DNA of 64,000 nt from an uncultured Bacteroidales bacterium. GTDB taxonomy: Bacteria > Bacteroidota > Bacteroidia > Bacteroidales > UBA11471. The stretch spans positions 1-64,000 of the forward strand of contig CANQQA010000001.1 in assembly GCA_947625885.1 (NCBI GenBank). The letters are read 5' to 3'. Below are positions 49,073-64,000 of this stretch, in pieces. Below the pieces are notes generated by a model. It saw only the letters and a list, made by a program, of their open reading frames with translations. It searched no databases and was not told the origin of the DNA. The stretch's first letter is position 1; every line of letters starts with the position of its first letter. The position numbers were made by a program, and so were the translations under genes.

Positions 49073-49129
49073 GAAAAAACCGTCGGCAGCTACAAATTAT
49101 TCCGCTATCTCTCGCCGCAAAAAAACAGA

Positions 49130-49705
49130 TTATAAATCTTCTCCGTTTGCTTGGTTGTATTCGTTGTCATAGTACAAAAAAATGTTATATGTTCCATGTA
49201 ATATCCCCTCCCCCGCTCTTATCATAAACCAAACAGATCTTTTTTCATAATCCGATGTCAAAGGTCGTTGGTAATAAGCAGCTTCATAACGTTTTTTATG
49301 AATAGACATTTCATACCCGATATCTTCACTTTCAGGTATAGTATAATCTTGTAGCGATATATATTTGGGATTGTTGGCGAATTGGGAACAAAGTTTGTTG
49401 AATCTTATTTTGATATTTGTCTCATCAATTTGATTTTTATCCCTCACCGCAATCCGATAAACTTTATTGTTATTCGTTACGACAGCGATATAAACGTCCT
49501 GTCCGTTAAATTCTCCTTCCAAATCGGCGCCTCTAAATTCAGCAGCTTCCGTATGTTGGAATCCTTTTGCTTGGAGTTTCCGTATCATTTCGGTTTTACT
49601 CCCATCGACGGGAATCCCTAAAAATTGGGTAACCGTTTTCTCCTGCTGCGCATATACCGCTATCGCAAATGCGAGCAACATCGTAATCGACAATAATTTT
49701 TTCAT
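49130..49705 (-). CDS. Secreted protein of unknown function
   Basis: 191 residues from the ATG at 49705, giving a clean signal peptide (MKKLLSITMLLAFAIAVYAQ). The 49744 start would add 13 residues before it. The mature part (VTQFLGIPVDGSKTEMIRKLQAKGFQHTEAAEFRGADLEGEFNGQDVYIAVVTNNNKVYRIAVRDK) resembles small Bacteroidota periplasmic proteins with a repeated strand-turn pattern, but I cannot name a domain. It is AT-richer than pyrK and stands at the edge of the accessory region. Confidence 0.75.
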   Translation of the reverse strand: MKKLLSITMLLAFAIAVYAQQEKTVTQFLGIPVDGSKTEMIRKLQAKGFQHTEAAEFRGADLEGEFNGQDVYIAVVTNNNKVYRIAVRDKNQIDETNIKIRFNKLCSQFANNPKYISLQDYTIPESEDIGYEMSIHKKRYEAAYYQRPLTSDYEKRSVWFMIRAGEGILHGTYNIFLYYDNEYNQANGEDL

Positions 49706-49759
49706 GTCATTAAATTTTGTGTCCCCCAGCTGCCACAAGGACATTCATAGAATACAGCA

Positions 49760-49891
49760 AAAGCGTGGAACTGCGATGCCACGTCTTAAGTTAGAGGTCC
49801 TGAGAAACCTTGTAGTACAGATATGGGAATAGCAGCCACGCTATAGCGTGAAAGCCACTATGCCATTCTTGTGCTAAATTTGAAAATTTTC
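49760..49891 (+). ncRNA. Candidate structured element, type 1, copy B
   Basis: Second copy of the element at 91-216. The core hairpin CACGC-TATA-GCGTG is at 49837-49850, closed by an outer pairing ATGG..ATAG with CTAT..CCAT (about 49823-49866), then the shared block GCCACTATG. A 5' hairpin CGTGG/CCACG lies near 49774-49792, and AGGT/ACCT forms a third small stem. The loop and stem sequences differ from copy A while pairing is kept. It lies between the last core gene and the integrase. Possible identities are an RNA or an attachment-linked structure. Confidence 0.4.
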
Positions 49892-50074
49892 TACATTCAT
49901 AAAGTAATGAAGTAAAATGGAAGGAAGAACGAAACAAATGCAAATATATTTATTGTATATCAATGTTTTATTGCCGTATAGTCTTTTTCATATTCTTTCA
50001 CCCGTTTCATATATTCGGCAGGTTTTTGCACCATTTTTGTTTCTCATTTGTTTCTCTATTTCGATTATTCTTTC

Positions 50075-50082
50075 TACCTTTG
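50075..50082 (+). promoter_or_regulatory. -7 element (TACCTTTG) for the integrase
   Basis: TACCTTTG fits TAnnTTTG and lies 31 bp before the ATG at 50114. Confidence 0.65.
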
Positions 50083-50113
50083 CGGCATAAAGAAAACAAC
50101 AAAAGGATCAACT

Positions 50114-51256
50114 ATGGCACGAGTAAAAAAGCCGTCCAAAATCAAAGAGCCGATTCGCCTCCGCATGAAGCCGCTCAACAACGGCAGCAAAAGCCTGTAT
50201 CTCGACATCTACCGTAACGGCAAACGTTCGTATGAATATTTGAAGATGTATACCATCCCCGAAGTAGATGACAATGCCCGCAAGCAGAATATCGTTACCA
50301 TGACGGCCGCCAATGCCATCAAGTCGAAACGCATTATCGAGATGACCAACGGCGAAGCCGGCATCAAGATGCCTGACGAGAAACCGAAGACGTTGCTGTC
50401 GGAGTGGATGCAGCAGTATATGGCTAATCAGGAGAGCAAGGGCAAAAAGGGGTTTCATCAAATTAAAGTCGCCATGCAGATTCTGAAAGATTATGCCGGA
50501 GAACAAGTAACGATGGAGGATGTAGACAAGACCTTCTGTAAAGGGTATATCGGCTACCTGCTGACCGAATACCAGCCTATGGGGAAACCGATATCGCGGT
50601 TCACGGCGCAGAATTATTATCGGGCGTTGAACGGTGCGCTGAATGCGGCCGTGAGAGCCGACATTATAAAAGTCAATCCGATGAACAAGTTGGATAACTC
50701 GGAGAAGATACGCCGTCCTGACAGCAAGCGCGAGTATATGACGATTGAAGAGATACGTTCTTTAATAGCTACGCCGATGGAGTATTCTGCAGTGAAGAAT
50801 GCCTACCTCTTTTCCTGCTTCTGCGGCTTGCGTATCAGCGATATTATCGGGTTGAAATGGAAGAACGTGTATATCGACAACGGGCAGTATCGGTTGGAAG
50901 TCGTGATGCAGAAGACAAAAGAACCGATATACCTGCCGTTATCCGAAGAAGCACTCAAATGGATGCCGGAACGAGGAGAGAAGACGGCAGAAGACCATGT
51001 TTTCGACCTGCCCTCTCCGACGTATATAAATGTCATTCTCAAACCATGGGCAAAGGCTGCAGGTATAGACAAGCATTTTACTTTTCATACGGCGCGCCAC
51101 ACGTTTGCCACGATGATGCTGACGTTAGGAGTCGACCTCTATACGACCTCGAAACTGCTCGGGCACTCCGATGTGCAGGTAACGCAGGTATATGCGAAAA
51201 TCGTCAATCGGAAGAAAGACGAGGCGGTCAATCTCGTGAACGGATTGTTCGATTAA
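50114..51256 (+). CDS. Tyrosine-type site-specific integrase
   Basis: 380 residues from the ATG at 50114; the in-frame 50048 start precedes the promoter and is rejected. The N-terminal Arm-binding-like part (IRLRMKPLNNGSKSLYLDIYRNGKRSYEYLKMY) is of the Bacteroidota transposon type, followed by a SAM-like core-binding domain. The catalytic residues are complete: Arg in FCGLRISDIIGLKW, HTARHTF, GHSDVQVT and Tyr in QVYAKI. It probably integrated the AT-rich island that follows. Its own base composition is close to the core genome. Confidence 0.93.
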   Translation: MARVKKPSKIKEPIRLRMKPLNNGSKSLYLDIYRNGKRSYEYLKMYTIPEVDDNARKQNIVTMTAANAIKSKRIIEMTNGEAGIKMPDEKPKTLLSEWMQQYMANQESKGKKGFHQIKVAMQILKDYAGEQVTMEDVDKTFCKGYIGYLLTEYQPMGKPISRFTAQNYYRALNGALNAAVRADIIKVNPMNKLDNSEKIRRPDSKREYMTIEEIRSLIATPMEYSAVKNAYLFSCFCGLRISDIIGLKWKNVYIDNGQYRLEVVMQKTKEPIYLPLSEEALKWMPERGEKTAEDHVFDLPSPTYINVILKPWAKAAGIDKHFTFHTARHTFATMMLTLGVDLYTTSKLLGHSDVQVTQVYAKIVNRKKDEAVNLVNGLFD

Positions 51257-51394
51257 CGACTTCGGGGAAATAGTGACAAAAAGAGTTTAGTTTACAAGGG
51301 TGGGCATATATAGGCTATAAACTAATCTAAATCGAATTTTGCAAACAAATGAAAAAAATAACCGAGCAGCGAAATTCGACATATAACAGGCAAA

Positions 51395-51506
51395 CATATC
51401 GGACAGACAAATGGCAGATGAGACCTCCGAGAAGACAACATAACAGTCGCTTTTCGGAAGCGACTTGTGCAACGACAATTCGCCGATATGTGGCAGACAG
51501 GAGGTC
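51395..51506. repeat. Interleaved inverted repeats around a perfect hairpin
   Basis: CATATCGG (51395-51402) pairs with CCGATATG (51483-51490). GACCTCC (51422-51428) pairs with GGAGGTC (51500-51506). Between them is a perfect 8-bp hairpin AGTCGCTT/AAGCGACT (51445-51465). The order A-B-hairpin-A'-B' is that of a pseudoknot if transcribed. The word GGCAGA recurs between A and B and between A' and B'. Integrase arm-type sites are another reading. Confidence 0.55.
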
Positions 51507-51744
51507 CGACATTGGCGCGACACTTAGTCGGTCTGCTGTTCCGCGAGATAATGACTATAACAGGAAACGCCTGCAACATATAGTTGCGGTTATCTTATCG
51601 AACAGTCCCGCACGCCGCCAACCTCACCCGAAAATGCGCACCAATTTCCGCTCTCTCCTTTCCCTTATTTCGCCCAATCATTAGATGGTCAAGCGACAAA
51701 ATAAGTAACAAATTTGCACGCCTTTGCCATACGCCCGAAGTCAT

Positions 51745-51883
51745 CATTGTACATTGCAGCCCACTTTGCTTGCAGATTATGTGGACATTCCCATACGAGC
51801 GCCAGTGTGTATGAGGGATTAGGCTACCCCAAGGAAAAATTTGTGGACAACGGGCAAGCCTGCATAATGATAATGAATGGCAT
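51745..51883 (+). ncRNA. Candidate structured RNA, type 2, left copy
   Basis: Shares with 63616-63766 the blocks CATTGTACAT (51745), GCTTGC (51768), ATTAGG (51818) and a GGCAAGCCTG block (51853). Offsets between blocks are 23, 50 and 36 nt here against 23, 50 and 37 nt in the other copy. Between them, CCCATAC pairs with GTAT-GA-GGG; the other copy forms the same stem from different bases. GCTTGC can pair with GCAAGC (51854-51859). It sits about 180 bp before the first island gene. Confidence 0.5.
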
Positions 51884-52029
51884 ATATCAGAGGGGTTAAC
51901 ATCCCCGTTTGACAGGTTGATTATACGGTTACCCTATCGGTGATTTTCTAAAATAGTTTTTAATTTGTAAAAATTCGAATTTTTGAAAAACTTTAAGCCA
52001 AAGTATGATCGGATGTGAGCAATTAGTCC

Positions 52030-52037
52030 TATATTTG
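52030..52037 (+). promoter_or_regulatory. -7 element (TATATTTG) for the island operon
   Basis: TATATTTG fits TAnnTTTG and lies 26 bp before the ATG at 52064. It may drive the AlbA_2 remnant and the ATPase-helicase genes beyond it. Confidence 0.6.
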
Positions 52038-52063
52038 TAAATGTCTAAAGAACAAATTACGAT

Positions 52064-52389
52064 ATGTTGACAGAAGGAGTTATAACGGAATTAGCGTGCA
52101 GAGTCGAAGATTTCAATGTAGACTTCAAGCGGAATATCTCCTCAAAGGTTCGAGATATTGCAGCGAAAATATGCTGTTTTGCAAACTCTGCCGGAGGATA
52201 TGTCATAAATGGCGAGGATAATGGCAATCGGATTGTCGGGATTGAGATGTCGAGATAGACAATAAAAACGCTCTCTATTCAAGATTCCATTGGTGAGATT
52301 TATATAAAAAAGTCTGAAGTGTCGTAGTCTTTGACTCGTGAAGATCGTAGAAGAAACGGTAAATGAATTTATTACGGACAGCATAACAT
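52064..52389 (+). pseudogene. Decayed AlbA_2 (Schlafen-like) domain gene
   Basis: The open frame 52064-52258 gives 64 residues matching the start of an AlbA_2 domain (EDFNVDFKRNISSKVRDIAAKICCFANSAGGYVINGEDNGNRIVGIEM), then stops. About 80 bp later another frame reads KIVEETVNEFITDSIT (52341-52388), which fits the end of the same domain. Intact relatives are longer and carry further domains. I read it as a broken remnant. It lies just after the island promoter, so its loss may leave an untranslated leader for the next gene. Confidence 0.55.
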
Positions 52390-52400
52390 AATGTTAAAGT

Positions 52401-52814
52401 ATGAACAACGATAACCATTCAGTGGGCGAAAAGATTTTAGTCCAGATCAATAAAATACAAGAAAATGGATGTTTTTGCACATTCCTGCCGACATGGCAAA
52501 ATCAATTCGGATTTATGCCGAACGAGCTAATGCATAGTTTTTTTGACGAGAATGGGAATTTAACCATATCTGTTAGAGATAAAATCGATGTAGTTATCTA
52601 TAAAATTACTGAAAAGGGATTTATTTTATCGGATGTCTCAACGTACGAGAAGAAAGAAAAAAATGTACAGCGATCTGCTTTGATTAGCGATTTTGTCTCA
52701 AAAAATAAAGCGGGAACTATTTTTGAGGCAGAGGTAACCGAAGTTCTTGATACCAAAGTTTTCATTAATCGTGGAGGCATTCAAGGAATCATCAAAAAGG
52801 AAGATACAAATTAG
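52401..52814 (+). CDS. S1-like RNA-binding N-terminal part of the large ATPase gene
   Basis: 137 residues ending at a TAG (52812-52814). Two S1/OB-like segments are visible: VGEKILVQINKIQENGCFCTFLPTWQNQFGFMPNEL, and AGTIFEAEVTEVLDTKVFINRGGIQGIIKKED. The second S1 unit is cut in its middle. In the same frame beyond the TAG the text continues NGIDRLEDLLFVGETIRAVYIGNEKGQLYFSIKLL, which supplies the missing VGE-V-V-G-LYFSIK strands of an S1 fold. This is therefore the front of one gene running to 57557, not an independent gene. Confidence 0.75.
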   Translation: MNNDNHSVGEKILVQINKIQENGCFCTFLPTWQNQFGFMPNELMHSFFDENGNLTISVRDKIDVVIYKITEKGFILSDVSTYEKKEKNVQRSALISDFVSKNKAGTIFEAEVTEVLDTKVFINRGGIQGIIKKEDTN

Positions 52815-52841
52815 AATGGAATAGATAGGTTAGAAGATTTA

Positions 52842-55800
52842 TTGTTCGTGGGAGAGACAATTAGAGCGGTTTACATTGGAAATGAAAAAGGACAATTATA
52901 TTTTAGCATAAAACTCTTAAATGAGAAGCCCTACGAAGATTGTCTCTATAATCTATCGCTGGTTGATTTGTTGAAATATGCAGGACACGATTCAAATGAG
53001 TTTATTGGGCAAGCCAAACAATATCATTATGGATTATTTATTGAAAATCTGTATTCTGCGAATGAACAGCAGCGAGGAAAACTTTTAATCGATCCTATTT
53101 TTGGATATAATCTTCGAGCCATTGTTCCAAATCCCGATTCGAATATCGAAGAAAATAGATATTATAAAGTAAAGTTGAAGTTGGTCGACAAACTCAAACG
53201 ATTAGAAAGAAATCAACTATTCCAATTCACCGCTGTAAATATTGAAGAAACCGATAATCCATACAAGGCGGATGTAAATTTGACTTTTGAGAAGTTCACA
53301 TCGCCAGCTGGCAATGTGGCGACCGCCCATTTATTAGCAGAGGTTGGAAAGAATATGTATTCTTCCAAAGATAGAATGTTTTTTGAGTTGATTCAAAATG
53401 CCGATGATGCGGCATCGGAAAAAGGCGTTCTAATCAATGTGAAAACATCGGGTGATTATTTGATCGTTCGTCATAATGGAAACAGTTTCGATAAAGACGA
53501 TTTTGAGGCCATTACATCGGCGGCAAATGGTACGAAAAAGGCTAATGAGAACAAAACCGGGTATAAAGGAATTGGCTTTAAATCTGTATTTACGGATTCT
53601 GAAAAAGTTTTTATTAAAACAGGGGGATACCAATTCAAATTTGATAGAAGCGATGACCGATTCACCGACTTTGAGTCATTTTATTTTTTAGTAAATAAAC
53701 TACAGACGGAAAAACAGCAGTCGTCCTTTTTGAAAAAGTTTCATAGCGAGTATACGAGGTTCAAGGGAGTCGTTGATATTCCTTGGCAATTAGAACCTAT
53801 TTGGATAGATAATTTTCCTCCTGAGCTAGGCGATGATTTCATATTCTCGAATGTCGCTATTGCCTTGAAATTAGGGGAAGCAAAAATCGTTGACAACAAT
53901 GGTTACAGGCAAGCCATAGAGGATATTATCCGCAATCCACGATTTATGTTATTCTTGCGCAAGACCAAGCGAATTGATTTTAATGAATTGTCTGTCAGCA
54001 AACAAACGAGCGGAGATGCCATTACGCTTAAAAACTCATTTTGCAAAACCCGAATCGAAAAATTTCAGCGAATCGATTTTGAGGTAGATGTCAATAATAC
54101 AGCATTTGAGGAGCATGATATCGATGTTAGAATCGATATAGAGGAACAAGACGAGACCGGAAAAATAATCGAAGCTAAATTTGTCGACATTCACAATCAA
54201 GAATTGGAGAATATTCCAAAGAAAATAGCTATCAATAATTCAACAGAGATTTCCTTTGCGATACCTATCGCAGAAGATGGCACAGTTATGCCAGATAAAG
54301 AACGTTCTGAAATATCGATGTTCGCATTTTTGCCGACACTGGTAAAAGATTTCAAGTTCCCATTTTTTATAAATGCCAACTTTATTCTCGATCCGCCTCG
54401 GCAAAGAATCTTGGGAGATAACCCGTGGAATTTCTATCTTATGCAGGAAATTGCAAGATGTATGGTCCGGTGGTGCATATCCCTGAATAAGAGGCACGAT
54501 AAGAATGCCTTAAACATTCTTATCCCTAAATTCTTCGAAGAAGACAGCGCAGACATAAAACGACTTGCGGAACATTTTAACCAAGCATATAAGTTTGCAA
54601 TTGAATCTGAAGCATTCATTCTTAACCATAAAGACAATCTCGCAAAGCAAGAGGAGATAGTTATTGATAAAACGGGTTTGTCAGTAATTGTCGGCGCAGA
54701 TTTATTCTGCCAATTACTGCAAACTGACAAATGCCTCCCATCGGAAAAGATCGACAGCAAGATATTGGAAGAAGATATTTTTGATGTAGAAATTCTAAAA
54801 TTCGAAGATATTATAAATGAAATTATAAATAATTCGGATTTCGATAATTGGTATTTCGCAGCATCGGACGATCAAAAGAAAATATTATATAAATGGCTAA
54901 ATGATAACAATATACAAACACGAAGGAACGATTTGCAGTCATTCGTAGCGTATTTGCCGGCATTCAAATTCGGCACAGATAACAAATCGTACAAGGACAT
55001 TGTTGAATCTGAATCTCCAAATTACGTTATTACAACAGAGTCCATAGAACCGATCAAAGAAATCCTGACTAAAATAGGCTTTATTTGTTCTGATAATGTT
55101 TTCGATGAGAACAGCCCTTTATATAAGTTCATTGAAATGCCTGATGAGGTGAATTTATTCGATCTCATCAAAGAATGTGATTTTTCGAAACTGGAAACAA
55201 AAGAAAGACAGAGTTTGTTCAAGACATTGAAAGACTTTGATGGCGTAGACGAAACAAAACTTAAAACGATACCCTTATTTAGGAATCAGACCGGAACACC
55301 AATGCCTTTAGGAGAGATGACGACATACCGAGAAAATGTCCATAAATGGTTGTATCCGTATGTTATATACAAAGATGATTATTGTGACGAATTGGACGAT
55401 TATATTATTAAACGAGAAGATGAATTTAAGAGTGTAATACAGAAACATTATGCAGATATAGATGCTTCATTGGGTGAATTATATAATGTTTATAAAAAAG
55501 AATGGACAGGGCAGTTCACTTGTCATCTTATAGAAAATTGCAAGATTGACGATGACATTCTCTCCATTATCGAAGAATCCGACAAGACGACACAAGAATA
55601 CTTTTTGGAAAGATGCGATAAGTTAAAATTGTTATCGTCTGCGACATACAAAAATAATTCATACGAGTCTCGTATTCTTCAATTAGCATTGTCCGTGTAT
55701 GACGAGCAGCCGTCAGACTTTTCCTCAAGGATTTATTTCGATGGACAATGCATCAAATCTTTTTCTGTATCCGATGAAGTCGTCTGCGATTTTCGTCAGA

Positions 55801-57557
55801 ACGGAGAAGAGAAGAAAGTTAAAATGTCGTTAGCGAAATTATTGCCGCAATATGAAAATCAGTCGGATACGATTGACAAAATAAAAGGATTATTTGAGAA
55901 TAAAAAGGGGTTGGGTAAATTCTTTGAGACGACACCTAAATCTATACTTGAAGTACATAGAGAGATAAATCAATCTCTCAATATTCCAGAGTCAGACTTT
56001 TCAGAATGGAAGGTTAATGGCGGCAATGCGTTTCAGTACTTATTTGCCACATATTACCGAAGAGAGAAGAAGAACTGTTTATATGTTCCTAAAATAGACC
56101 TCACCAAAGAAACGGATGAATTTATAAATGATATGCTAAATTTTCTTTTCATCAATGGTATTTCAGTGGAAGAGTCGCCTTTTACGTACCACATTAGAGA
56201 ATATTTCACTAATAAGTATTTTGATTCAGATTATATTTTTGAGAACGAACTATTATTGCCAGTTATCGAAAAATGGGCTGCCGATGACAAAAAGAAACAA
56301 TATCTCCTCCAAAATGGCGTAAAGGCAGCTAATAGTCCTGCGATATCATTTCGGCGTCTCTTTTTAGAAAATAAACCCATAGAATTCATAGATCGGTTAT
56401 CTAACGCAGAGTTGTACTCCGGTGTCGAATTTATTGCAACAGCGGCTGGATATAAGAGACCCTTTGTCGGAAAGTATCAGAAGAAAATTCTTTTGTCATT
56501 AAAGGATAAATGCCATGATTTGCAGGGTTGGGAGGATCGGTGGTATAAAGAAAAAATAGAAAAATCTGCCAAAGAATGGGATACTACGGAATACAGTAAA
56601 TGGATTAACGATCATAATCTTCGTATCTTTATTTATCCTGGAGTTCTGCCACGCCAGTTATCGTACAACAAGAAGGAGAAGGTGGTCATATTGAATTATG
56701 AGGATAATGAATACGATTATTATAATGATAAAGAGAAACGGTTGTTTGTTTGCGGTCGCCGGAAAATAGAAGATGTCTTATTCGCAGTCGCCAAAGAAGA
56801 AGAGGACGCCGATTTTGATTTCGATGATTACAAGGCTCTTTGTGTTGATGGAATATCGATTTCGAAAAAAGAAATTGCCGATAAAGAAGAAAAGATAAAA
56901 TCGTTATCTGAAGAAAATCGCAGGAAAGATGAAATTATTGCGCAATATAAAGCGAAATATGGCGATCTAACGAAAGGTATGGAAAATCCGACTGATGATA
57001 GCGAAATAGATTCTGATGACAAAATAAAACAGCCGATTGAACGTGATGGATTATCTCGTGAGCAACAAATAGCGGCCCATAACGAGGCCGAACATATAAT
57101 AAAAGAGAAATTAGAGGGGTCGGGCTATGATTGCTCGAGCTGGATTATAAATGATGATATACCAGAATATCGACATAGTATCATTAATCCCGATGGTAAA
57201 CCCATAAATCTGATTATAAAAAGTGTCAAAGGAGGGTATATATATCTAAGCGCTACTGATTTTGAGTTCTTAACATCGGATAGTAATAATGTGTTGATGG
57301 TATGGGATGGTAGGACTGTTCATAGTGTTACGGCGGACGATATTTTTAACAAAGATTCCACTGTTAATTTGATTTTTGATACAGAATATACCCCAAAACA
57401 TTACTATGCGGCACTTAGCAGAGTTTTCCAATATGTCAAACGGACTACTTTTGCGGTCAAAAATCCGAACTATAATGCGTATGACGCAATAAAGACGTTT
57501 GGTATGGATTCAAAAACTGAAGGTGTTCAAGAATTGTTCGATGATAATGATTTATAA
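52842..57557 (+). CDS. Large sacsin/Hsp90-type ATPase with DUF3883-like C-terminus
   Basis: 1571 residues if started at a TTG at 52842, but the frame is open from 52815 and continuous with the S1 part except for the TAG. The domain order is: rest of an S1 unit (1-30), linker, GHKL/sacsin-type ATPase at about 165-330 with N-box FFELIQNADDA (near 179), RHNGNSFDKDDFEAIT and TGYKGIGFKSVF (near 238), a long middle of unknown fold, a coiled coil (about 1340-1375, KEEKIKSLSEENRRKDEIIAQYKAKY), then a DUF3883-like domain (about 1410-1540, HIIKEKLEGSGYDCSSW...INLIIKSVKGGYIYLSATDFEFL). Proteins of this architecture occur in defence islands. The next gene starts 3 bp later. Confidence 0.85.
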   Translation: MFVGETIRAVYIGNEKGQLYFSIKLLNEKPYEDCLYNLSLVDLLKYAGHDSNEFIGQAKQYHYGLFIENLYSANEQQRGKLLIDPIFGYNLRAIVPNPDSNIEENRYYKVKLKLVDKLKRLERNQLFQFTAVNIEETDNPYKADVNLTFEKFTSPAGNVATAHLLAEVGKNMYSSKDRMFFELIQNADDAASEKGVLINVKTSGDYLIVRHNGNSFDKDDFEAITSAANGTKKANENKTGYKGIGFKSVFTDSEKVFIKTGGYQFKFDRSDDRFTDFESFYFLVNKLQTEKQQSSFLKKFHSEYTRFKGVVDIPWQLEPIWIDNFPPELGDDFIFSNVAIALKLGEAKIVDNNGYRQAIEDIIRNPRFMLFLRKTKRIDFNELSVSKQTSGDAITLKNSFCKTRIEKFQRIDFEVDVNNTAFEEHDIDVRIDIEEQDETGKIIEAKFVDIHNQELENIPKKIAINNSTEISFAIPIAEDGTVMPDKERSEISMFAFLPTLVKDFKFPFFINANFILDPPRQRILGDNPWNFYLMQEIARCMVRWCISLNKRHDKNALNILIPKFFEEDSADIKRLAEHFNQAYKFAIESEAFILNHKDNLAKQEEIVIDKTGLSVIVGADLFCQLLQTDKCLPSEKIDSKILEEDIFDVEILKFEDIINEIINNSDFDNWYFAASDDQKKILYKWLNDNNIQTRRNDLQSFVAYLPAFKFGTDNKSYKDIVESESPNYVITTESIEPIKEILTKIGFICSDNVFDENSPLYKFIEMPDEVNLFDLIKECDFSKLETKERQSLFKTLKDFDGVDETKLKTIPLFRNQTGTPMPLGEMTTYRENVHKWLYPYVIYKDDYCDELDDYIIKREDEFKSVIQKHYADIDASLGELYNVYKKEWTGQFTCHLIENCKIDDDILSIIEESDKTTQEYFLERCDKLKLLSSATYKNNSYESRILQLALSVYDEQPSDFSSRIYFDGQCIKSFSVSDEVVCDFRQNGEEKKVKMSLAKLLPQYENQSDTIDKIKGLFENKKGLGKFFETTPKSILEVHREINQSLNIPESDFSEWKVNGGNAFQYLFATYYRREKKNCLYVPKIDLTKETDEFINDMLNFLFINGISVEESPFTYHIREYFTNKYFDSDYIFENELLLPVIEKWAADDKKKQYLLQNGVKAANSPAISFRRLFLENKPIEFIDRLSNAELYSGVEFIATAAGYKRPFVGKYQKKILLSLKDKCHDLQGWEDRWYKEKIEKSAKEWDTTEYSKWINDHNLRIFIYPGVLPRQLSYNKKEKVVILNYEDNEYDYYNDKEKRLFVCGRRKIEDVLFAVAKEEEDADFDFDDYKALCVDGISISKKEIADKEEKIKSLSEENRRKDEIIAQYKAKYGDLTKGMENPTDDSEIDSDDKIKQPIERDGLSREQQIAAHNEAEHIIKEKLEGSGYDCSSWIINDDIPEYRHSIINPDGKPINLIIKSVKGGYIYLSATDFEFLTSDSNNVLMVWDGRTVHSVTADDIFNKDSTVNLIFDTEYTPKHYYAALSRVFQYVKRTTFAVKNPNYNAYDAIKTFGMDSKTEGVQELFDDNDL

Positions 57558-57560
57558 ACG

Positions 57561-59672
57561 ATGAAATACACAAGAAAAGATTTTGAAAATTTTCTCAACA
57601 CAGAATTAGAGTCGCAAGTCAAAGAGTATGAACAGGTGGTTTGTACTAAAGCTCTTGTGTTGAAAGAGCGTGGCGATGTTTTTGTCGGTCGCTTTATCAA
57701 GTTGCAGCCTAACGGAATAGCAATCTTCAAAGTTCGTAATACGGACAATATGCCACGTAAAAACTCATTTTGGATTGCGTCATTTCTGATTGGGGAAATG
57801 GGTAGTTTCAAAAATTGGGGAAATAACTCTTGGGCCGAACTTCGACAGAACTATCAAAGTGCTTATTCCGATGCATTATGTGTCTGGATACAGAAATCCG
57901 ATGAAAATGATTTCTGCATTATCGGCATAAAAAATTTAACGATAGAGTTTGCGCAGCTATTAAAAGAGAACGAAACCATTATTGCATTCGGGCCTAAAGA
58001 CCCTCCGTTACAATATCTAATGAACTTAATTGACATAGTGCGTGATTCATCGTGTGTGGAAACTCGGCAGATTTTAGATTACGATGAAACAGCGAATCGG
58101 TGGAATCCTCATAAAGTTGAAGCAAAAGAAGATCTTACCTCTATGCTGATTAACGATATGCAAGGGAATAATAATTGCATTGTAGTACAAGGTCCTCCGG
58201 GGACGGGTAAGACATATCGTATGGCCAAATTTACAGCTAAATTGTTAGCGGATAGCAAAAGTGTTTTAGTTACTGCGCTTACCAATCAGGCTCTGATGGA
58301 ATTGGCAAAAAAAGAAGATATTATACCATTTCTCGATAATGGCAAAGTATCAAAAACGAGCCTGACAGTCGATGAAAATAGAGAACTCTCTAAGCTTCTG
58401 CCGATAAAAGACAATCTATGCAATGCTTCTCGAGGGAATCTTTCGCTGGCTACATTTTATTTGTCAAGTGGCTGGGCAAAAGGGAATGTAGACAAACCTT
58501 TCGACTATGTTATTGTTGATGAGGCTAGTCAAGCTCTTCTTCCAATGATAGCAGCAACAATGAAATTAGGTGAAAAGGTCGTTTTAATCGGCGATCAGAA
58601 CCAATTACCTCCAATTGTAATAACTAATGAAGATGCGATAAATAAATTTCAATGGAACTCAATTGTAAAAGGTTTTGAAACAGTATGTTATAATTTTCCT
58701 TTCAAAACTTATATGCTTAGAGATACTTTTCGTTTAACCAAGCGAGGTGCGGAAAGTACGGGCATTTTTTATAATAACGAATTGCGATCTGTATCGGAAA
58801 CACAAATAATCCCAACGGAGTTAGAAGTAATCAATCCACAAGGCGGTCCTGTGTTTGTCGGATTGGATATGAAAAATGGAGATAAGGCTCCTGTTAACGC
58901 TTTTGATGCGATCTTTGATCATGTCTGCAAGATTTTAGTAGAATCGCCCCAAACAGAGATTGCGGTATTATCAAAATTCAGGGAATCGGTTCGGCAATTA
59001 CAAAAGCACTTCGTAATAAAATGGAATGCATCTAAAGGATTGCCAGATAATATTCGTATTGAAACGGTAGATAGAGTTCAAGGATTGACGGTTGATTATT
59101 GTGTTTTTTTTATTCCCAATGCATCATTATATTACTCCTTACAAAACGAATTATTCAATGTAGCGACTTCCCGTGCAAGATATGGGACTCTAATCGTTGC
59201 CGATAATTCCATTTTGAAGAATAATATGTCCGAAGAGGTACGAAAGTATTTACTCAAAGCGCAAGAGGATAAATTCGCCACATTCGCACCACAAACTATA
59301 ACAGCAGGGAATATCGGTGTAACAATTACAGGTAAAATAGACCTCTCTAAATTTGAAAGAAAAAGAAAAGAAATTGTTGAAGATAAGGAAAATATCTATA
59401 TTATTGATACCAATGTTTTTGTGAACTGCCCCGATATAATTTCTCGCATCGGTAATAAATACAAAATAATCATTCCAGCAAAAGTGTTGGAAGAACTTGA
59501 TAAACTAAAATTAAAAGCCGATATCGATAAGAAAAACTTGAACGAGGCAGCAAAGAATATCAATACTGCGTTTGTCAAACATTATACTCAAATGGAAGAA
59601 GCAAACTTGTCATTATTGCCAAAAGATTTTGATCGACACAACCCGGATTGTATGATATTGTCTGTCGCATAA
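57561..59672 (+). CDS. SF1 (Upf1-like) helicase fused to a PIN nuclease, frameshifted at the end
   Basis: 703 residues as read. An N-terminal ~200-residue domain precedes an SF1B AAA_11/AAA_12 helicase: Walker A QGPPGTGKT (near 212-220), Walker B YVIVDEASQ (near 316), motif III GDQNQLPP, motif IV LRDTFRL, motif V TVDRVQGLTVDY, motif VI NVATSRARYG (near 530). From about 610 a PIN domain starts (IYIIDTNVFVN, VLEELDKLK, DRHNPDCMILSVA) with three acidic residues. The TAA follows, but in the -1 frame KYKTDNPILLTSDNMLQSRASGLGITTISLKEFLRR continues the PIN fold and brings the fourth Asp, ending at 59782. Confidence 0.88.
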   Translation: MKYTRKDFENFLNTELESQVKEYEQVVCTKALVLKERGDVFVGRFIKLQPNGIAIFKVRNTDNMPRKNSFWIASFLIGEMGSFKNWGNNSWAELRQNYQSAYSDALCVWIQKSDENDFCIIGIKNLTIEFAQLLKENETIIAFGPKDPPLQYLMNLIDIVRDSSCVETRQILDYDETANRWNPHKVEAKEDLTSMLINDMQGNNNCIVVQGPPGTGKTYRMAKFTAKLLADSKSVLVTALTNQALMELAKKEDIIPFLDNGKVSKTSLTVDENRELSKLLPIKDNLCNASRGNLSLATFYLSSGWAKGNVDKPFDYVIVDEASQALLPMIAATMKLGEKVVLIGDQNQLPPIVITNEDAINKFQWNSIVKGFETVCYNFPFKTYMLRDTFRLTKRGAESTGIFYNNELRSVSETQIIPTELEVINPQGGPVFVGLDMKNGDKAPVNAFDAIFDHVCKILVESPQTEIAVLSKFRESVRQLQKHFVIKWNASKGLPDNIRIETVDRVQGLTVDYCVFFIPNASLYYSLQNELFNVATSRARYGTLIVADNSILKNNMSEEVRKYLLKAQEDKFATFAPQTITAGNIGVTITGKIDLSKFERKRKEIVEDKENIYIIDTNVFVNCPDIISRIGNKYKIIIPAKVLEELDKLKLKADIDKKNLNEAAKNINTAFVKHYTQMEEANLSLLPKDFDRHNPDCMILSVA

Positions 59673-59782
59673 AATATAAAACCGACAATCCCATACTTTT
59701 GACCTCAGACAATATGCTTCAGTCGAGAGCCAGTGGATTAGGTATAACAACAATATCTCTCAAGGAGTTTCTGAGAAGATGA
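59673..59782 (+). pseudogene. Frameshifted C-terminal end of the helicase-PIN gene
   Basis: Read one base back from the annotated frame, this stretch encodes 36 residues that complete the PIN domain (strand NPILLTSDN with the conserved Asp, then LGITTISLKEFL). Its TGA at 59780-59782 overlaps the ATG of the next small gene at 59779, a normal coupled arrangement. This supports the view that the ancestral gene ended here and that a one-base loss occurred near the A-rich run at 59670-59685. Confidence 0.7.
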
Positions 59783-60033
59783 CTCAATATGGCTTATCAA
59801 TTGGTAAAGCAGCTGGACAGTATAAGCGTTCTTCCATCAAACGACATTTGATCGCCGCTAAACAAAATAGTTGCAATCCCAATGATGATGTTAGAGATTT
59901 TCTTGTGGGATTCCGTCCGGATTGTATAATCGAATGCGATCGCCATTTCTTCCTTGTGCGAGAACTTTGCCGATCTTCGACTTTTCTGATGTACGATAAG
60001 TTATATCGAATATCAGCAACCGTCATCTATTGA
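59779..60033 (+). CDS. Small protein of unknown function (84 aa)
   Basis: Starts MTQYGLSIGKAAGQYKRSSIKRH and ends with DKLYRISATVIY. It has several Cys residues but no motif I recognise. An open frame of similar length exists on the opposite strand. The only support for this strand is the ATGA overlap with the repaired end of the helicase-PIN gene and its place between that gene and the restriction operon. It may be a degraded gene. Confidence 0.35.
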   Translation: MTQYGLSIGKAAGQYKRSSIKRHLIAAKQNSCNPNDDVRDFLVGFRPDCIIECDRHFFLVRELCRSSTFLMYDKLYRISATVIY

Positions 60034-60096
60034 GACGTAAGTTAGTCGGCATAAAATATATCTGCCGCCTCCATATGTTTATTCAATTAAAATCAT

Positions 60097-60104
60097 TATT
60101 TTTG
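60097..60104 (+). promoter_or_regulatory. -7 element (TATTTTTG) of the restriction-system regulator
   Basis: TATTTTTG fits TAnnTTTG. Only 7 bp separate it from the ATG at 60112, so the mRNA would start at or next to the start codon. Confidence 0.6.
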
Positions 60105-60111
60105 CCAAATA

Positions 60112-60378
60112 ATGACAAACCGATTCGATATGTTGTTCGGAGATAAGATAAAAGAGTTGCGGGAGAATCGGCGATTGCTACAACGTCAAATGGCAATGTC
60201 ATTAGGTATCAATGTGCCTATGTATAGCCGCATTGAGCGCGGAGAACGTCGGGCAAAGAGGGAGCAAGTAATAATTCTCTCTCAAATTCTCGATGTCGAA
60301 ACCGAAGACTTGCGGTGTTTATGGTTAGCCGATAAAGTAGTATCTGTAATTCATGAAGAATCCGATTTTGGCAGATAG
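60112..60378 (+). CDS. XRE-family regulator of the restriction-modification operon
   Basis: 88 residues, nearly all helix-turn-helix (MLFGDKIKELRENRRLLQRQMAMSLGINVPMYSRIERGERRAKREQVIILSQILDV), followed by a short tail. This is the size and shape of a controller (C) protein or the small XRE regulators that precede methyltransferase genes in Bacteroidota. It is 42 bp upstream of the methyltransferase gene. It probably sets the delay or balance between methyltransferase and nuclease. Its transcript appears leaderless. Confidence 0.85.
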   Translation: MTNRFDMLFGDKIKELRENRRLLQRQMAMSLGINVPMYSRIERGERRAKREQVIILSQILDVETEDLRCLWLADKVVSVIHEESDFGR

Positions 60379-60420
60379 GACATTGCAAATGATAATAGAA
60401 ACTCGTAATACGACAGGTTT

Positions 60421-61698
60421 ATGAAAACAACGCATAGACTGATACAGGGAGATAGCCGCAATTTGTCCCGTATAAAGGATAAATCCGTCCACCTCATAAT
60501 TACATCGCCTCCATATTGGCAATTGAAAGATTATGGTAATGACGGACAAATCGGCTTTCATGACAGTTACGAAAATTACATAAACAATCTGAACGCGGTT
60601 TGGGCAGAATGCTATCGCGTGCTGCATGACGGTTGCCGTTTGTGCATAAATATCGGCGACCAATTCGCCAGATCGGTCTATTACGGCAGGTACAAGGTTA
60701 TCCCTATTAGAACAGAGATAATCCGCTTCTGCGAGACACTCGGAATGGATTATATGGGAGCCGTAATATGGCAAAAACAGACTACGATGAATACGACCGG
60801 CGGTGGTGCCGTCATGGGGAGTTTCCCTTATCCGCGCAATGGAATTCTTAAAATCGACTACGAATTCATACTTATTTTCAAGAAACAAGGCAAAGCCCCG
60901 GTGCCGACTATCGAGCAGAAAAAGCTCTCGGAGATGACGAAAGAGGAGTGGAACACCTGTTTCGCTTCGCATTGGAATTTCGGCGGAGCGAAACAAGACG
61001 GACATATCGCTGTATTTCCAGAAGAACTTCCGCGCCGTTTGATTAAGATGTTTTCTTTTGCAGGGGAAATCGTATTCGATCCGTTTATGGGTAGCGGCAC
61101 GACGGCATTAGCGGCTCGCAATCTGCAAAGAAACTCTATCGGATATGAAATCAACCCCGACTTCAGGCAGTATTACGAGCAGAAGTTGGTTTCATCATTA
61201 CTGTTCGATGAGGCTGAATATTCATTCGAGCGGGACGATGCGAAATTCGATATCGATGATAAAATGAGAGCGCTACCCTATATGTTCCGCGATCCTCATA
61301 AGATGAACAGCAAAATAGACATCAAGCAGTTGCAGTTCGGTTCTAAAATAGATAAGAGCAGTAAGGAGCGGGAGGAATATTTTTCGGTAAAAACGATTTT
61401 GTCGCCCAATACCATGATACTTAACAATGGTCTTACGATAAGACTTCTCGGCATCAAAGAAAAACCATCGGTAAATGGGAATGCTACCAAGTTCCTGATG
61501 GAAAAAACGAAAGGTAAAAAAGTCTTTCTTCGGTACGATACGGTAAAATATGATGACCACGATATGCTATTGTGTTACTTGTATCTGGACAACAAGACAT
61601 TTATTAATGCGCATATGCTAAAAAACGGATTAGCGGATGTGGACTATTCTTTCGATTTCAAATATAAAGACAAGTTCGAAAAATTGATAAACGCATAA
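60421..61698 (+). CDS. Beta-class DNA methyltransferase with SNase-like C-terminal domain
   Basis: 425 residues. Motif IV TSPPYW (residues 28-33) comes before motif I FDPFMGSGTT (219-228), the beta-class order; SPPY suits N4-cytosine or N6-adenine methylation. Residues about 337-425 resemble staphylococcal nuclease (LTIRLLGIKEKP...KGKKVFLRYDTVKYDDHDMLLCYLYLDNKTFINAHMLKNGLADVDY), but the usual second catalytic Glu and Arg are not obvious, so this domain may be inactive or used for DNA binding. The nuclease gene follows 3 bp later. It protects host DNA from that enzyme. Confidence 0.85.
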   Translation: MKTTHRLIQGDSRNLSRIKDKSVHLIITSPPYWQLKDYGNDGQIGFHDSYENYINNLNAVWAECYRVLHDGCRLCINIGDQFARSVYYGRYKVIPIRTEIIRFCETLGMDYMGAVIWQKQTTMNTTGGGAVMGSFPYPRNGILKIDYEFILIFKKQGKAPVPTIEQKKLSEMTKEEWNTCFASHWNFGGAKQDGHIAVFPEELPRRLIKMFSFAGEIVFDPFMGSGTTALAARNLQRNSIGYEINPDFRQYYEQKLVSSLLFDEAEYSFERDDAKFDIDDKMRALPYMFRDPHKMNSKIDIKQLQFGSKIDKSSKEREEYFSVKTILSPNTMILNNGLTIRLLGIKEKPSVNGNATKFLMEKTKGKKVFLRYDTVKYDDHDMLLCYLYLDNKTFINAHMLKNGLADVDYSFDFKYKDKFEKLINA

Positions 61699-61701
61699 AA
61701 T

Positions 61702-62385
61702 ATGGAAATATACTCGATGAATTTCGGCAAGAAAGAGCGCGTACTGAACTACGCTTGCCAAACATACCAACTCTCTCGCCCGAACAAGGTAGGCGCTGTT
61801 ATGGCTCTTATCCGCGATTGCCAGCCGTCATCATTCGAAGAGTGGAGGACATGGTATTTCGAAAATGCTCATACGGCAGGCAAGAATTCGACGAAAATTA
61901 CCGTCGAAAGTCTGAAAGAGTTGGGTGAAAGATTATATACAAAAATTACGGAGGTGGTTATTCCCGAATGGGAAGCGGCATTCCGTGAGTTAACGGAGCA
62001 AGATTGCATCGATTATATCTATAACCTGACGATAAATCGCACTTATGATGGATATCTGCGAGAGAAATCGGTCATCAATGATGGCTTGGCAAAAATATTT
62101 CCCGATATCGTTTTCGAAGAGAGCGATCCGGAATTAGACCACGCCGGAGATATCGATTACATTGCAAAGGTTAGTGACAAATGTATCGGAATACAAATCA
62201 AACCGATAACGGCGAGTGCCAATTTCGGAAGCTATTCGCTGACCGAGCGAATGAAAGCGAGCTTCGCGTCGTTCAAAGAGCAGTTCGGTGGTGAGGTATT
62301 TATCGTATTCAGTTTAGACGGTGAAATTGCAAACAAAGATGTCGTCGAACAAATACGCGAAGAAATAATGCGTCTATCCGAATAA
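61702..62385 (+). CDS. Type II restriction endonuclease, MjaI-family-like
   Basis: 227 residues; a second ATG at 61714 is also possible. The sequence fits my recollection of the MjaI family: YQLSRPNKVGAVMALI, EEWRTWYFENA, YIYNLTINRTYDGYLREKSVI, and a PD-(D/E)xK-like core LDHAGDIDYIAKV...GIQIKPITASANFG with Gln before the Lys. MjaI cuts CTAG; whether this enzyme does is not known. It lies directly behind the methyltransferase, which favours a cognate pair. Confidence 0.75.
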   Translation: MEIYSMNFGKKERVLNYACQTYQLSRPNKVGAVMALIRDCQPSSFEEWRTWYFENAHTAGKNSTKITVESLKELGERLYTKITEVVIPEWEAAFRELTEQDCIDYIYNLTINRTYDGYLREKSVINDGLAKIFPDIVFEESDPELDHAGDIDYIAKVSDKCIGIQIKPITASANFGSYSLTERMKASFASFKEQFGGEVFIVFSLDGEIANKDVVEQIREEIMRLSE

Positions 62386-62395
62386 CTATAATGTC

Positions 62396-62862
62396 ATGAA
62401 GAAAACGGCGGTGAAAGATTGTAGGAAGATTCCTAAAATAGGGGTTATAGACCTATTCTGCGGTATTGGTGGACTTAGTTTCGGAATGAAAAGCAAAGGT
62501 TTCAATATTCTTGCAGGTTACGACCTCGATTCGACATGTCGATATGCCTACGAAACGAATAATGAGGCGAAATTCATATACAAAGACATAAAAACTGTAA
62601 AACGGTCGTATTGGTTAATGGCTGTTTCTGGCATGGACATAAAGACTGTAAACCTGCGCATCTGCCATCTACGAATTTGGACTATTGGGAGAAAAAGATT
62701 GCCGATAATGTAGAACGAGATGAACGAAAGAGGCAAGAATTAGAAAAGTTAGGATATAAAGTTCTTATCGTGTGGCAATGCCAACTTAAAACGAAAGTCC
62801 GTTCCGATAATTTAGAAAAATTATATAGTGACATAATAAATGGAAGAACAAGCATTTGCTAA
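62396..62862 (+). pseudogene. Chimeric remnant: start of a C5-cytosine methyltransferase joined to the end of Vsr
   Basis: The frame 62396-62713 begins like Dcm (IGVIDLFCGIGGLSFGMKSKGFNILAGYDLDSTCRYAYETNNEAKFIYKDIK, motif I and acidic motif II), then loses similarity. From about 62585 another frame, open to 62862, reads VVLVNGCFWHGHKDCKPAHLPSTNLDYWEKKIADNVERDERKRQELEKLGYKVLIVWQCQL, the C-terminal half of a very-short-patch repair endonuclease. Motifs IV-X of the methyltransferase and the N-terminus of Vsr with its catalytic Asp are gone. This is best explained by one internal deletion of a dcm-vsr pair. Confidence 0.8.
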
Positions 62863-63577
62863 ACAACTGCAAATATGTGCAGATACGATACAGGCGGTAG
62901 CCTCTAATGTTGAACGAGGAGTTCCGTGTGAAAAGATCGACTACTCCGATTTGTATGCAGTGTTATACAAGTTAATACCGTTATTTCCTCGCTCATTAGA
63001 CTTGTATCAAAAGAGGCTCCGCGATATAATCCTTCCAAACATAAAGCTGCAAAATGCGGTTCAATATAATCAATTCGGACAGCAGATAATTATCCCAAAC
63101 AATGGGATTAACCCGATTGTCTTTGGGCAACTAATCGCTACCATACGCTATATACAAGCTCATATCACTTCGAATAACGATGTAGGCTTTTGGTCTGAAA
63201 TTCACCCCGAGATAATTAAATCTTCCCGAGAGTTATTCGAAAATTCGCATTATCCGGAGGCTGTAGAAGCTGCATTTTTAGAGATAACGATTCGAGTAAA
63301 AACTATCGTACGAGATAAAACAGGAGAGAAGGTTGATGGGACATCTGCTATGGAAAAGGCTTTCTCAGCAAATAACCCAATAATTAGTTTAGGCGATACT
63401 TCCACACAAACAGGTCGAGATATTCAGCGTGGATACATGGAATTATTTACCGGCAGTGTACGATGCATTCGCAATCCGAGAGCTCATGAAAGGATCGTCG
63501 TAGATAGAACGGAGGCTATAAGAAAATTGCATTTAGCGAGCCTTCTGATGTCTGCAATAGACAATGCCACTATTTAA
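62840..63577 (+). CDS. Abortive-infection Ymh-like protein (TIGR02391 type)
   Basis: 245 residues. The C-terminal ~130 residues match the Ymh family found in phage-defence and prophage settings: EIIKSSRELFENSHYPEAVEAAFLEITIRVK, MEKAFSANNPIISLGDTSTQTGRDIQRGYMELFTGSVRCIRNPRAHE. The RNPRAHE block is a HEPN-like RxxxH-type element, so RNase activity is possible. The N-terminal half is helical. It overlaps the Vsr remnant by 23 bp and is the last island gene. Confidence 0.75.
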   Translation: MEEQAFAKQLQICADTIQAVASNVERGVPCEKIDYSDLYAVLYKLIPLFPRSLDLYQKRLRDIILPNIKLQNAVQYNQFGQQIIIPNNGINPIVFGQLIATIRYIQAHITSNNDVGFWSEIHPEIIKSSRELFENSHYPEAVEAAFLEITIRVKTIVRDKTGEKVDGTSAMEKAFSANNPIISLGDTSTQTGRDIQRGYMELFTGSVRCIRNPRAHERIVVDRTEAIRKLHLASLLMSAIDNATI

Positions 63578-64000
63578 TTGCGGTAATCGCAATTCTAAGA
63601 GAGTGCCAAATAAGCCATTGTACATGTGGACTTATTCTGCTTGCAGGTGTACTTGATTAAAAGCTCTCCCGACCGAAAGGGTTAGGGCATTAGGTCACCC
63701 ATGGTTTATGAAAAGTATACAACAGGCAAGCCTGTACGAATTCTACAACTGGCAATGAATTTTGCCTGATAGAAGAAAAATGTCGTGTCGCTGTTCGATG
63801 CAATTGCCTCAATACGACGGATAACAGCCCCTACAACAGCCGTCCATCACGTAACTGACCAGATATGGGAAGCAATGCCGATTGTATTATATCGCCCGTA
63901 AAAAGCCGAAAATGGAGTAAGCGCACTGCCCTGTTGCATAGACAATCGTAAAAATCGCTCCAAGCAAAAAGATTCTTGCAGCCAAAAGAAAAATATACGA
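63578..64000. other. Non-coding right end of the island
   Basis: 423 bp without a gene. It holds the right copy of the type 2 structured element. Downstream (63840-63880) a short match CAGATATGGGAA to the type 1 element is seen, but the rest of that element does not align clearly. Confidence 0.5.
63616..63766 (+). ncRNA. Candidate structured RNA, type 2, right copy
   Basis: Blocks CATTGTACAT (63616), GCTTGC (63639), ATTAGG (63689) and AGGCAAGCCTG (63725) repeat the left copy at 51745. The variable stem is CCC-GACC, loop, GGTT-A-GGG, with an unpaired A at the same place as in the other copy. The hairpin ends in a GAAA-type loop. A final hairpin GGCAA/TTGCC lies at 63751-63766. The stretch begins 38 bp after the Ymh-like gene stop, so the two copies bracket the island. 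Confidence 0.5.

What the first reader, a model, noticed from the sequence alone, without database searches (positions are those of the whole stretch)
52790..52870. In-frame TAG splits an S1 domain of the large ATPase gene
Seen: the frames 52401-52814 and 52842-57557 are the same phase, and the 9 codons between are open apart from TAG at 52812. The text before (VTEVLDTKVFINRGGIQGIIKKED) and after (VGETIRAVYIGNEKGQLYFSIKLL) together make one S1 unit. One base change explains the split. Options are a recent inactivating mutation, suppression or readthrough of the amber codon, re-initiation at TTG 52842, or a sequencing error.
Basis: seen in the sequence. Interest (0 to 1): 0.7.

Follow-up and report, generated by a model that had tools for sequence, protein, structure and literature searches.

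The report
Recently broken two-gene defence-type operon
A stop codon has appeared where all four close relatives have a tryptophan, in the first gene of a foreign, defence-type operon whose second gene is also broken, so this is most likely an ordinary, recent gene death and not a new way of reading the code.

Summary
TAG 52812-52814 is the only stop in a 1719-codon frame (52401-57557). The four closest homologues (48-59% identical) cross the site without a stop and have TGG (Trp) there, the Trp of the 'D-x-S-W' motif of ribosomal-S1-type domains.

The best explanation is recent inactivation of one gene in a decaying foreign island. The next gene (SF1 helicase-PIN, 57561-59672) is also broken: its conserved last ~37 residues lie in another frame at 59672-59782. 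Nearby are a truncated AlbA_2 gene and a C5-methylase/Vsr deletion remnant. A sister species 95-97% identical in flanking DNA lacks the ~19.7-kb island.

Sequencing error is unlikely but not excluded: 101 genes (44,175 codons) on the same contig show no confirmed nonsense or frameshift against the sister, while two lesions fall in 7.4 kb here. Suppression is unlikely: RF1 is present, no CUA-decoding tRNA was found, and TAG ends 20 of 157 long ORFs. Apart from the two lesions both genes are well conserved, so the damage is young.

Intact relatives encode an uncharacterised pair (S1 + sacsin-type GHKL ATPase, then SF1 helicase + PIN), distantly like Tiamat TmtA and Mokosh MkoA.

The parts
52401..52814 (+). 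5' part of the S1-sacsin ATPase gene: N-terminal region and first half of an S1 domain, ended by the TAG
   Evidence: PF00575, profile 3-34/74
52812..52814 (+). in-frame TAG (codon 138); TGG/Trp in the four closest homologues
   Evidence: S1 motif Trp in ribosomal protein S1
52815..57557 (+). rest of the gene: second half of the S1 domain, sacsin/HSP90-like GHKL ATPase region, long C-terminal part
   Evidence: PF25794 SACS 3.6e-10; TmtA 8.4e-93
52842..52844 (+). TTG proposed for re-initiation; a Leu codon (TTG) in three of four homologues
57561..59672 (+). partner gene: SF1 helicase + PIN_4, cut short (PIN profile 1-96/132)
   Evidence: homologues 738-750 aa; intact PIN 1-131/132
59672..59782 (+). 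conserved C-terminal tail of the PIN domain in another frame: second lesion (frameshift)
52064..52258 (+). truncated Schlafen/AlbA_2 gene fragment just upstream
   Evidence: (PF04326 3.5e-8, 1-48/118)
62396..62713 (+). 5' fragment of a C5 cytosine methylase (profile 3-56/324)
62614..62862 (+). 3' fragment of Vsr endonuclease in another frame, overlapping the methylase fragment (deletion remnant)
   Evidence: (TIGR00632 3.4e-18, 63-119/119)
50048..51256 (+). tyrosine integrase near the left end of the island
   Evidence: PF00589 7e-27
49122..64000 (.). part of the foreign island that lies in the window (runs on to about contig position 68784); absent from sister species G005

Best explanation
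This is a recent loss-of-function (nonsense) mutation in a horizontally acquired, defence-type two-gene operon that is decaying as a whole. Inferred working: the intact system is a large protein with S1 RNA-binding domains and a sacsin/HSP90-like ATPase, paired with an SF1 helicase fused to a PIN ribonuclease, plausibly acting on foreign nucleic acid, RNA in particular. Shown by sequence: in this genome the ATPase frame stops inside its S1 domain at a position that is Trp in close relatives, and the PIN domain of the partner is cut off by a frameshift. Inferred: the operon no longer makes a working system and is no longer kept by selection.
For: All four close homologues are open across the site with Trp (TGG) there. 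That Trp matches the 'D-x-S-W' Trp of ribosomal protein S1. The partner gene has an independent lesion, with its conserved tail in another frame at 59672-59782. Further decay lies in the same island: AlbA_2 fragment, C5-methylase/Vsr remnant. The island is absent from sister species G005, which has about 52 bases at the site. On the same contig 101 genes, 44,175 codons, have no confirmed nonsense or frameshift against G005. The lesions are young: the window departs from otherwise invariant columns in 5.7% (ATPase) and 3.0% (helicase), the lowest of five sequences.
Against: No reads or second isolate were available, so both lesions rest on one assembly. The rest of the 5.1-kb gene is undamaged, which a still-expressed gene would show as well. 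A more distant relative (L002) lacks S1 domains, so an S1-less product need not be dead.
Confidence: 0.86

Rival explanations
1. Sequencing or assembly error, or a consensus mixed from strains, put the TAG (and perhaps the frameshift) into an intact operon.
For: One draft assembly of 46 contigs, no reads; each lesion is a single-base event; apart from them both genes are clean.
Against: 101 genes (44,175 codons, about 132 kb) of the same contig have no confirmed nonsense or frameshift against G005, yet two lesions lie in 7.4 kb. If two errors fell at random over the 140 kb, both would fall here with probability about 0.003. The island holds other decayed genes that base errors cannot make.
Confidence: 0.07
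2. Functional split: a short S1 peptide and a re-initiated ATPase (TTG 52842) are made as separate working proteins.
For: Same frame, 9 codons between stop and TTG; distant relative L002 begins directly at the ATPase without S1.
Against: The break lies inside one S1 fold; TTG there is a Leu codon in three of four homologues; no homologue has two genes; the partner gene is broken as well.
Confidence: 0.05
3. Readthrough or suppression of the UAG gives the full-length protein (recoding or conditional expression).
For: A single TAG in an otherwise open frame; weak local structure downstream (z -1.9, 13 of 200 shuffles as good).
Against: RF1 present; 43 tRNA matches, none with anticodon CTA in ARAGORN output; TAG ends 20 of 157 long non-overlapping ORFs on C1; no homologue has TAG here; nothing in this would explain the frameshift in the partner.
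Confidence: 0.02

Closest known systems
Tiamat (PADLOC TmtA)
   Same: Best PADLOC family for the ATPase region: TmtA 8.4e-93, 1e-89 for intact L009; large sacsin/GHKL-type ATPase.
   Different: The best stretch covers about a third of the best model; S1 domains are added in front and a helicase-PIN partner follows in all four close loci. That Tiamat is a single-gene system is from my own knowledge.
Mokosh (MkoA helicase)
   Same: The partner helicase matches MkoA at 5e-32 and MkoC at 1.6e-18, through the SF1 helicase core.
   Different: It carries a PIN_4 domain; PMC10952713 lists a PLD-like domain for Mokosh types I and II and a NERD domain for type I. No PLD or NERD hit appears in the Pfam scans.
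Ribosomal protein bS1 S1 domains
   Same: The split domain aligns with a solved ribosomal protein S1 at 3.6e-7, Trp included.
   Different: Here the domain belongs to an ATPase of about 1,700 residues, not to the ribosome.
Ordinary pseudogenes of acquired defence islands
   Same: Nonsense, frameshift, truncation and deletion in several genes of one island beside an integrase.
   Different: Nothing that sets it apart, except that the damage in the two operon genes looks very young.

Membership tests
Pseudogene by recent nonsense mutation | Sense codon at the site in homologues with an otherwise conserved frame | tested here: met
   TGG (Trp) in L006-L009; frame otherwise open for 1719 codons
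Pseudogene by recent nonsense mutation | No evident route to full-length product: RF1 present and no suppressor tRNA | tested here: met
   (genome 94% complete)
Pseudogene by recent nonsense mutation | Lesion real in the organism, not in the assembly only | not testable with these tools
   no reads; indirect support
Stop-codon readthrough / recoding | Stop conserved among homologues | tested here: not met
   no homologue has a stop at the site
Stop-codon readthrough / recoding | Spanning peptides detected | not testable with these tools
   -
Tiamat (TmtA) | Full-length match to TmtA models | tested here: inconclusive
   strong but partial matches
Mokosh | SF1 helicase with PLD-type (and, type I, NERD) domains | tested here: not met
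   PIN_4 instead; no PLD or NERD hit in Pfam scans (PMC10952713)
Anti-phage system | Protection against phage shown | not testable with these tools
   -

The most novel reading that the evidence does not exclude
The S1-sacsin ATPase/helicase-PIN operon is a new RNA-directed conflict system that is costly enough to be switched off often, by mutation or by phase variation; the window and L006 (broken near a C8 tract and once more downstream) would be two independent off states.
Probability: 0.1. Interest if true: 0.55.

Novelty: new member of a known kind. Interest (0 to 1): 0.22.

Why it matters
It removes a candidate case of amber recoding and shows that what an annotation pipeline would call two genes is one broken gene. 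The useful by-product is the intact form in relatives: a conserved pair, S1 + sacsin-type ATPase next to SF1 helicase + PIN, for which I found no description in the papers that could be searched, and which is a reasonable candidate for testing as a phage defence system.

Tried and rejected
Suppressor tRNA and recoding: looked for, nothing. Local RNA structure for readthrough: weak. Promoter for a separate downstream gene: promoter-like sites no more frequent than in shuffles. Other copies of the exact site: none in viral contigs; no relative in viral contigs or phages, one distant match in plasmids; ATPase protein not found in six other genomes of the genus, and a DNA search of the genus with 49778-64000 gave only short matches. 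Ten apparent breaks in a first, cruder comparison were examined; most look like antisense shadow ORFs or start differences, and with the coding strand chosen by synonymous excess one remained (C1 22500-23615), which covers two adjacent intact C1 ORFs and was not resolved further. One phylum search failed and was repeated. Papers: no description of this operon found.

Full report
Observation. The frame 52401-57557 is open for 1719 codons except for TAG at 52812-52814, codon 138. A six-frame search with an intact homologue recovers the locus as one match with one TAG inside. The upstream ORF holds only the first half of an S1 domain, so the stop falls within a fold, not between two domains.

Homologues. 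A scan of 84,980 species genomes by peptide patterns gave four loci: L006 (59% identical), L007 (49%), L008 (50%), L009 (48%), all from metagenome-assembled genomes, three of them titled as rumen or rectum samples. In all four the S1 region and the ATPase are joined across the site in one frame, and the codon is TGG, Trp, in the context K-K-E-D-x-N-W-N or close to it. By alignment with solved ribosomal proteins S1 this is the Trp of the 'D-L-S-W' motif. A fifth, more distant homologue (L024, 35%) is also joined there, without Trp. L002, more distant still, begins at the ATPase without S1 domains.

A second lesion. The next gene, 57561-59672, is an SF1 helicase with a PIN domain. It ends after 703 residues, at PIN profile position 96 of 132; the four homologues have 738-750 residues and an intact one reaches position 131. 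The missing tail is present in the window in another frame, 59672-59782. The gene order ATPase, then helicase-PIN, is kept in all four homologous loci. Both genes of the operon are thus broken, by unrelated events.

The island. Against sister species G005 the contig is colinear up to 49121 and again from 68785; G005 has about 52 bases in between. The 19.7-kb insertion holds an integrase (50048-51256), an AlbA_2 fragment, the operon, an MjaI-type restriction enzyme with its methylase (apparently intact), a C5-methylase fragment overlapped by a Vsr fragment, and further genes. The left edge is not exact: G004 shares sequence to about 49777, where its contig ends.

Error or real? Using ORFs of G005 and choosing the coding strand by excess of synonymous changes, 101 genes with 44,175 codons (4085 synonymous, 1047 nonsynonymous codon differences) were compared with contig C1. 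One gene was flagged, at C1 22500-23615, where C1 has two adjacent ORFs; it looks like a wrong frame but was not resolved. A general error rate that gives two lesions in 7.4 kb is therefore unlikely (about 0.003 that two random errors in 140 kb both fall here). Without reads it is not excluded.

Suppression? RF1 is present. Rfam finds 43 tRNAs; ARAGORN on the loci that hold them shows no CTA anticodon. TAG terminates 20 of 157 long non-overlapping ORFs on C1. The genome is 94% complete, so a missing tRNA cannot be wholly ruled out.

Age. Among columns invariant in the other four sequences, the window departs in 5.7% (ATPase) and 3.0% (helicase, its lost tail counted as gap); the others depart in 9.9-19.9% and 4.8-30.2%. 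Part of this is due to the window's central position among the five, but L006, nearest to it, has 11.0% and 6.5% (L006 is itself broken). There is no sign of long neutral drift.

What the intact thing may be. PADLOC gives TmtA (Tiamat) for the ATPase and MkoA (Mokosh) for the helicase; NCBIfam gives the sacsin N-terminal ATP-binding domain. Neither PADLOC match is full-length, and the PIN domain does not fit Mokosh. S1 and PIN domains point to RNA. That it is a defence system is inferred from domains and neighbours and has not been tested.

Verdict. The thing itself is ordinary: a young nonsense mutation in a decaying foreign operon.

Noticed in passing
L006:2100-2420 and 6150-6260: The nearest homologue is broken too: a frame change near a run of eight C in an AT-rich stretch, and another near 6200. 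Slippage at the C run could be phase variation, decay or sequencing error.
   Followed up: partly
window 62396-62862: Start of a C5-methylase gene and end of a vsr gene overlap in different frames, as a deletion joining the two would leave.
   Followed up: partly
L007:2985-5135: A retron-type reverse transcriptase (NCBIfam retron/TIR RT 7.4e-88, under cut-off) and an unassigned gene lie directly upstream of the intact operon.
   Followed up: no
window 49778-49897: A 100-120-base sequence that recurs elsewhere in this genome (C18, 97%) and at several places in G004 and G005 (77-86%).
   Followed up: no
contig C1 67908-68759 (L015:7908-8759): DUF1848-like gene at the right end of the island, matching PADLOC's RTasDUF1848 (1.3e-30), next to an uncharacterised 755-aa gene and a UvrD-like helicase gene.
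   Followed up: no
window 60115-60375: Small HTH_3 protein (1.1e-10) just before the methylase gene, likely a controller of the restriction-modification system.
   Followed up: no
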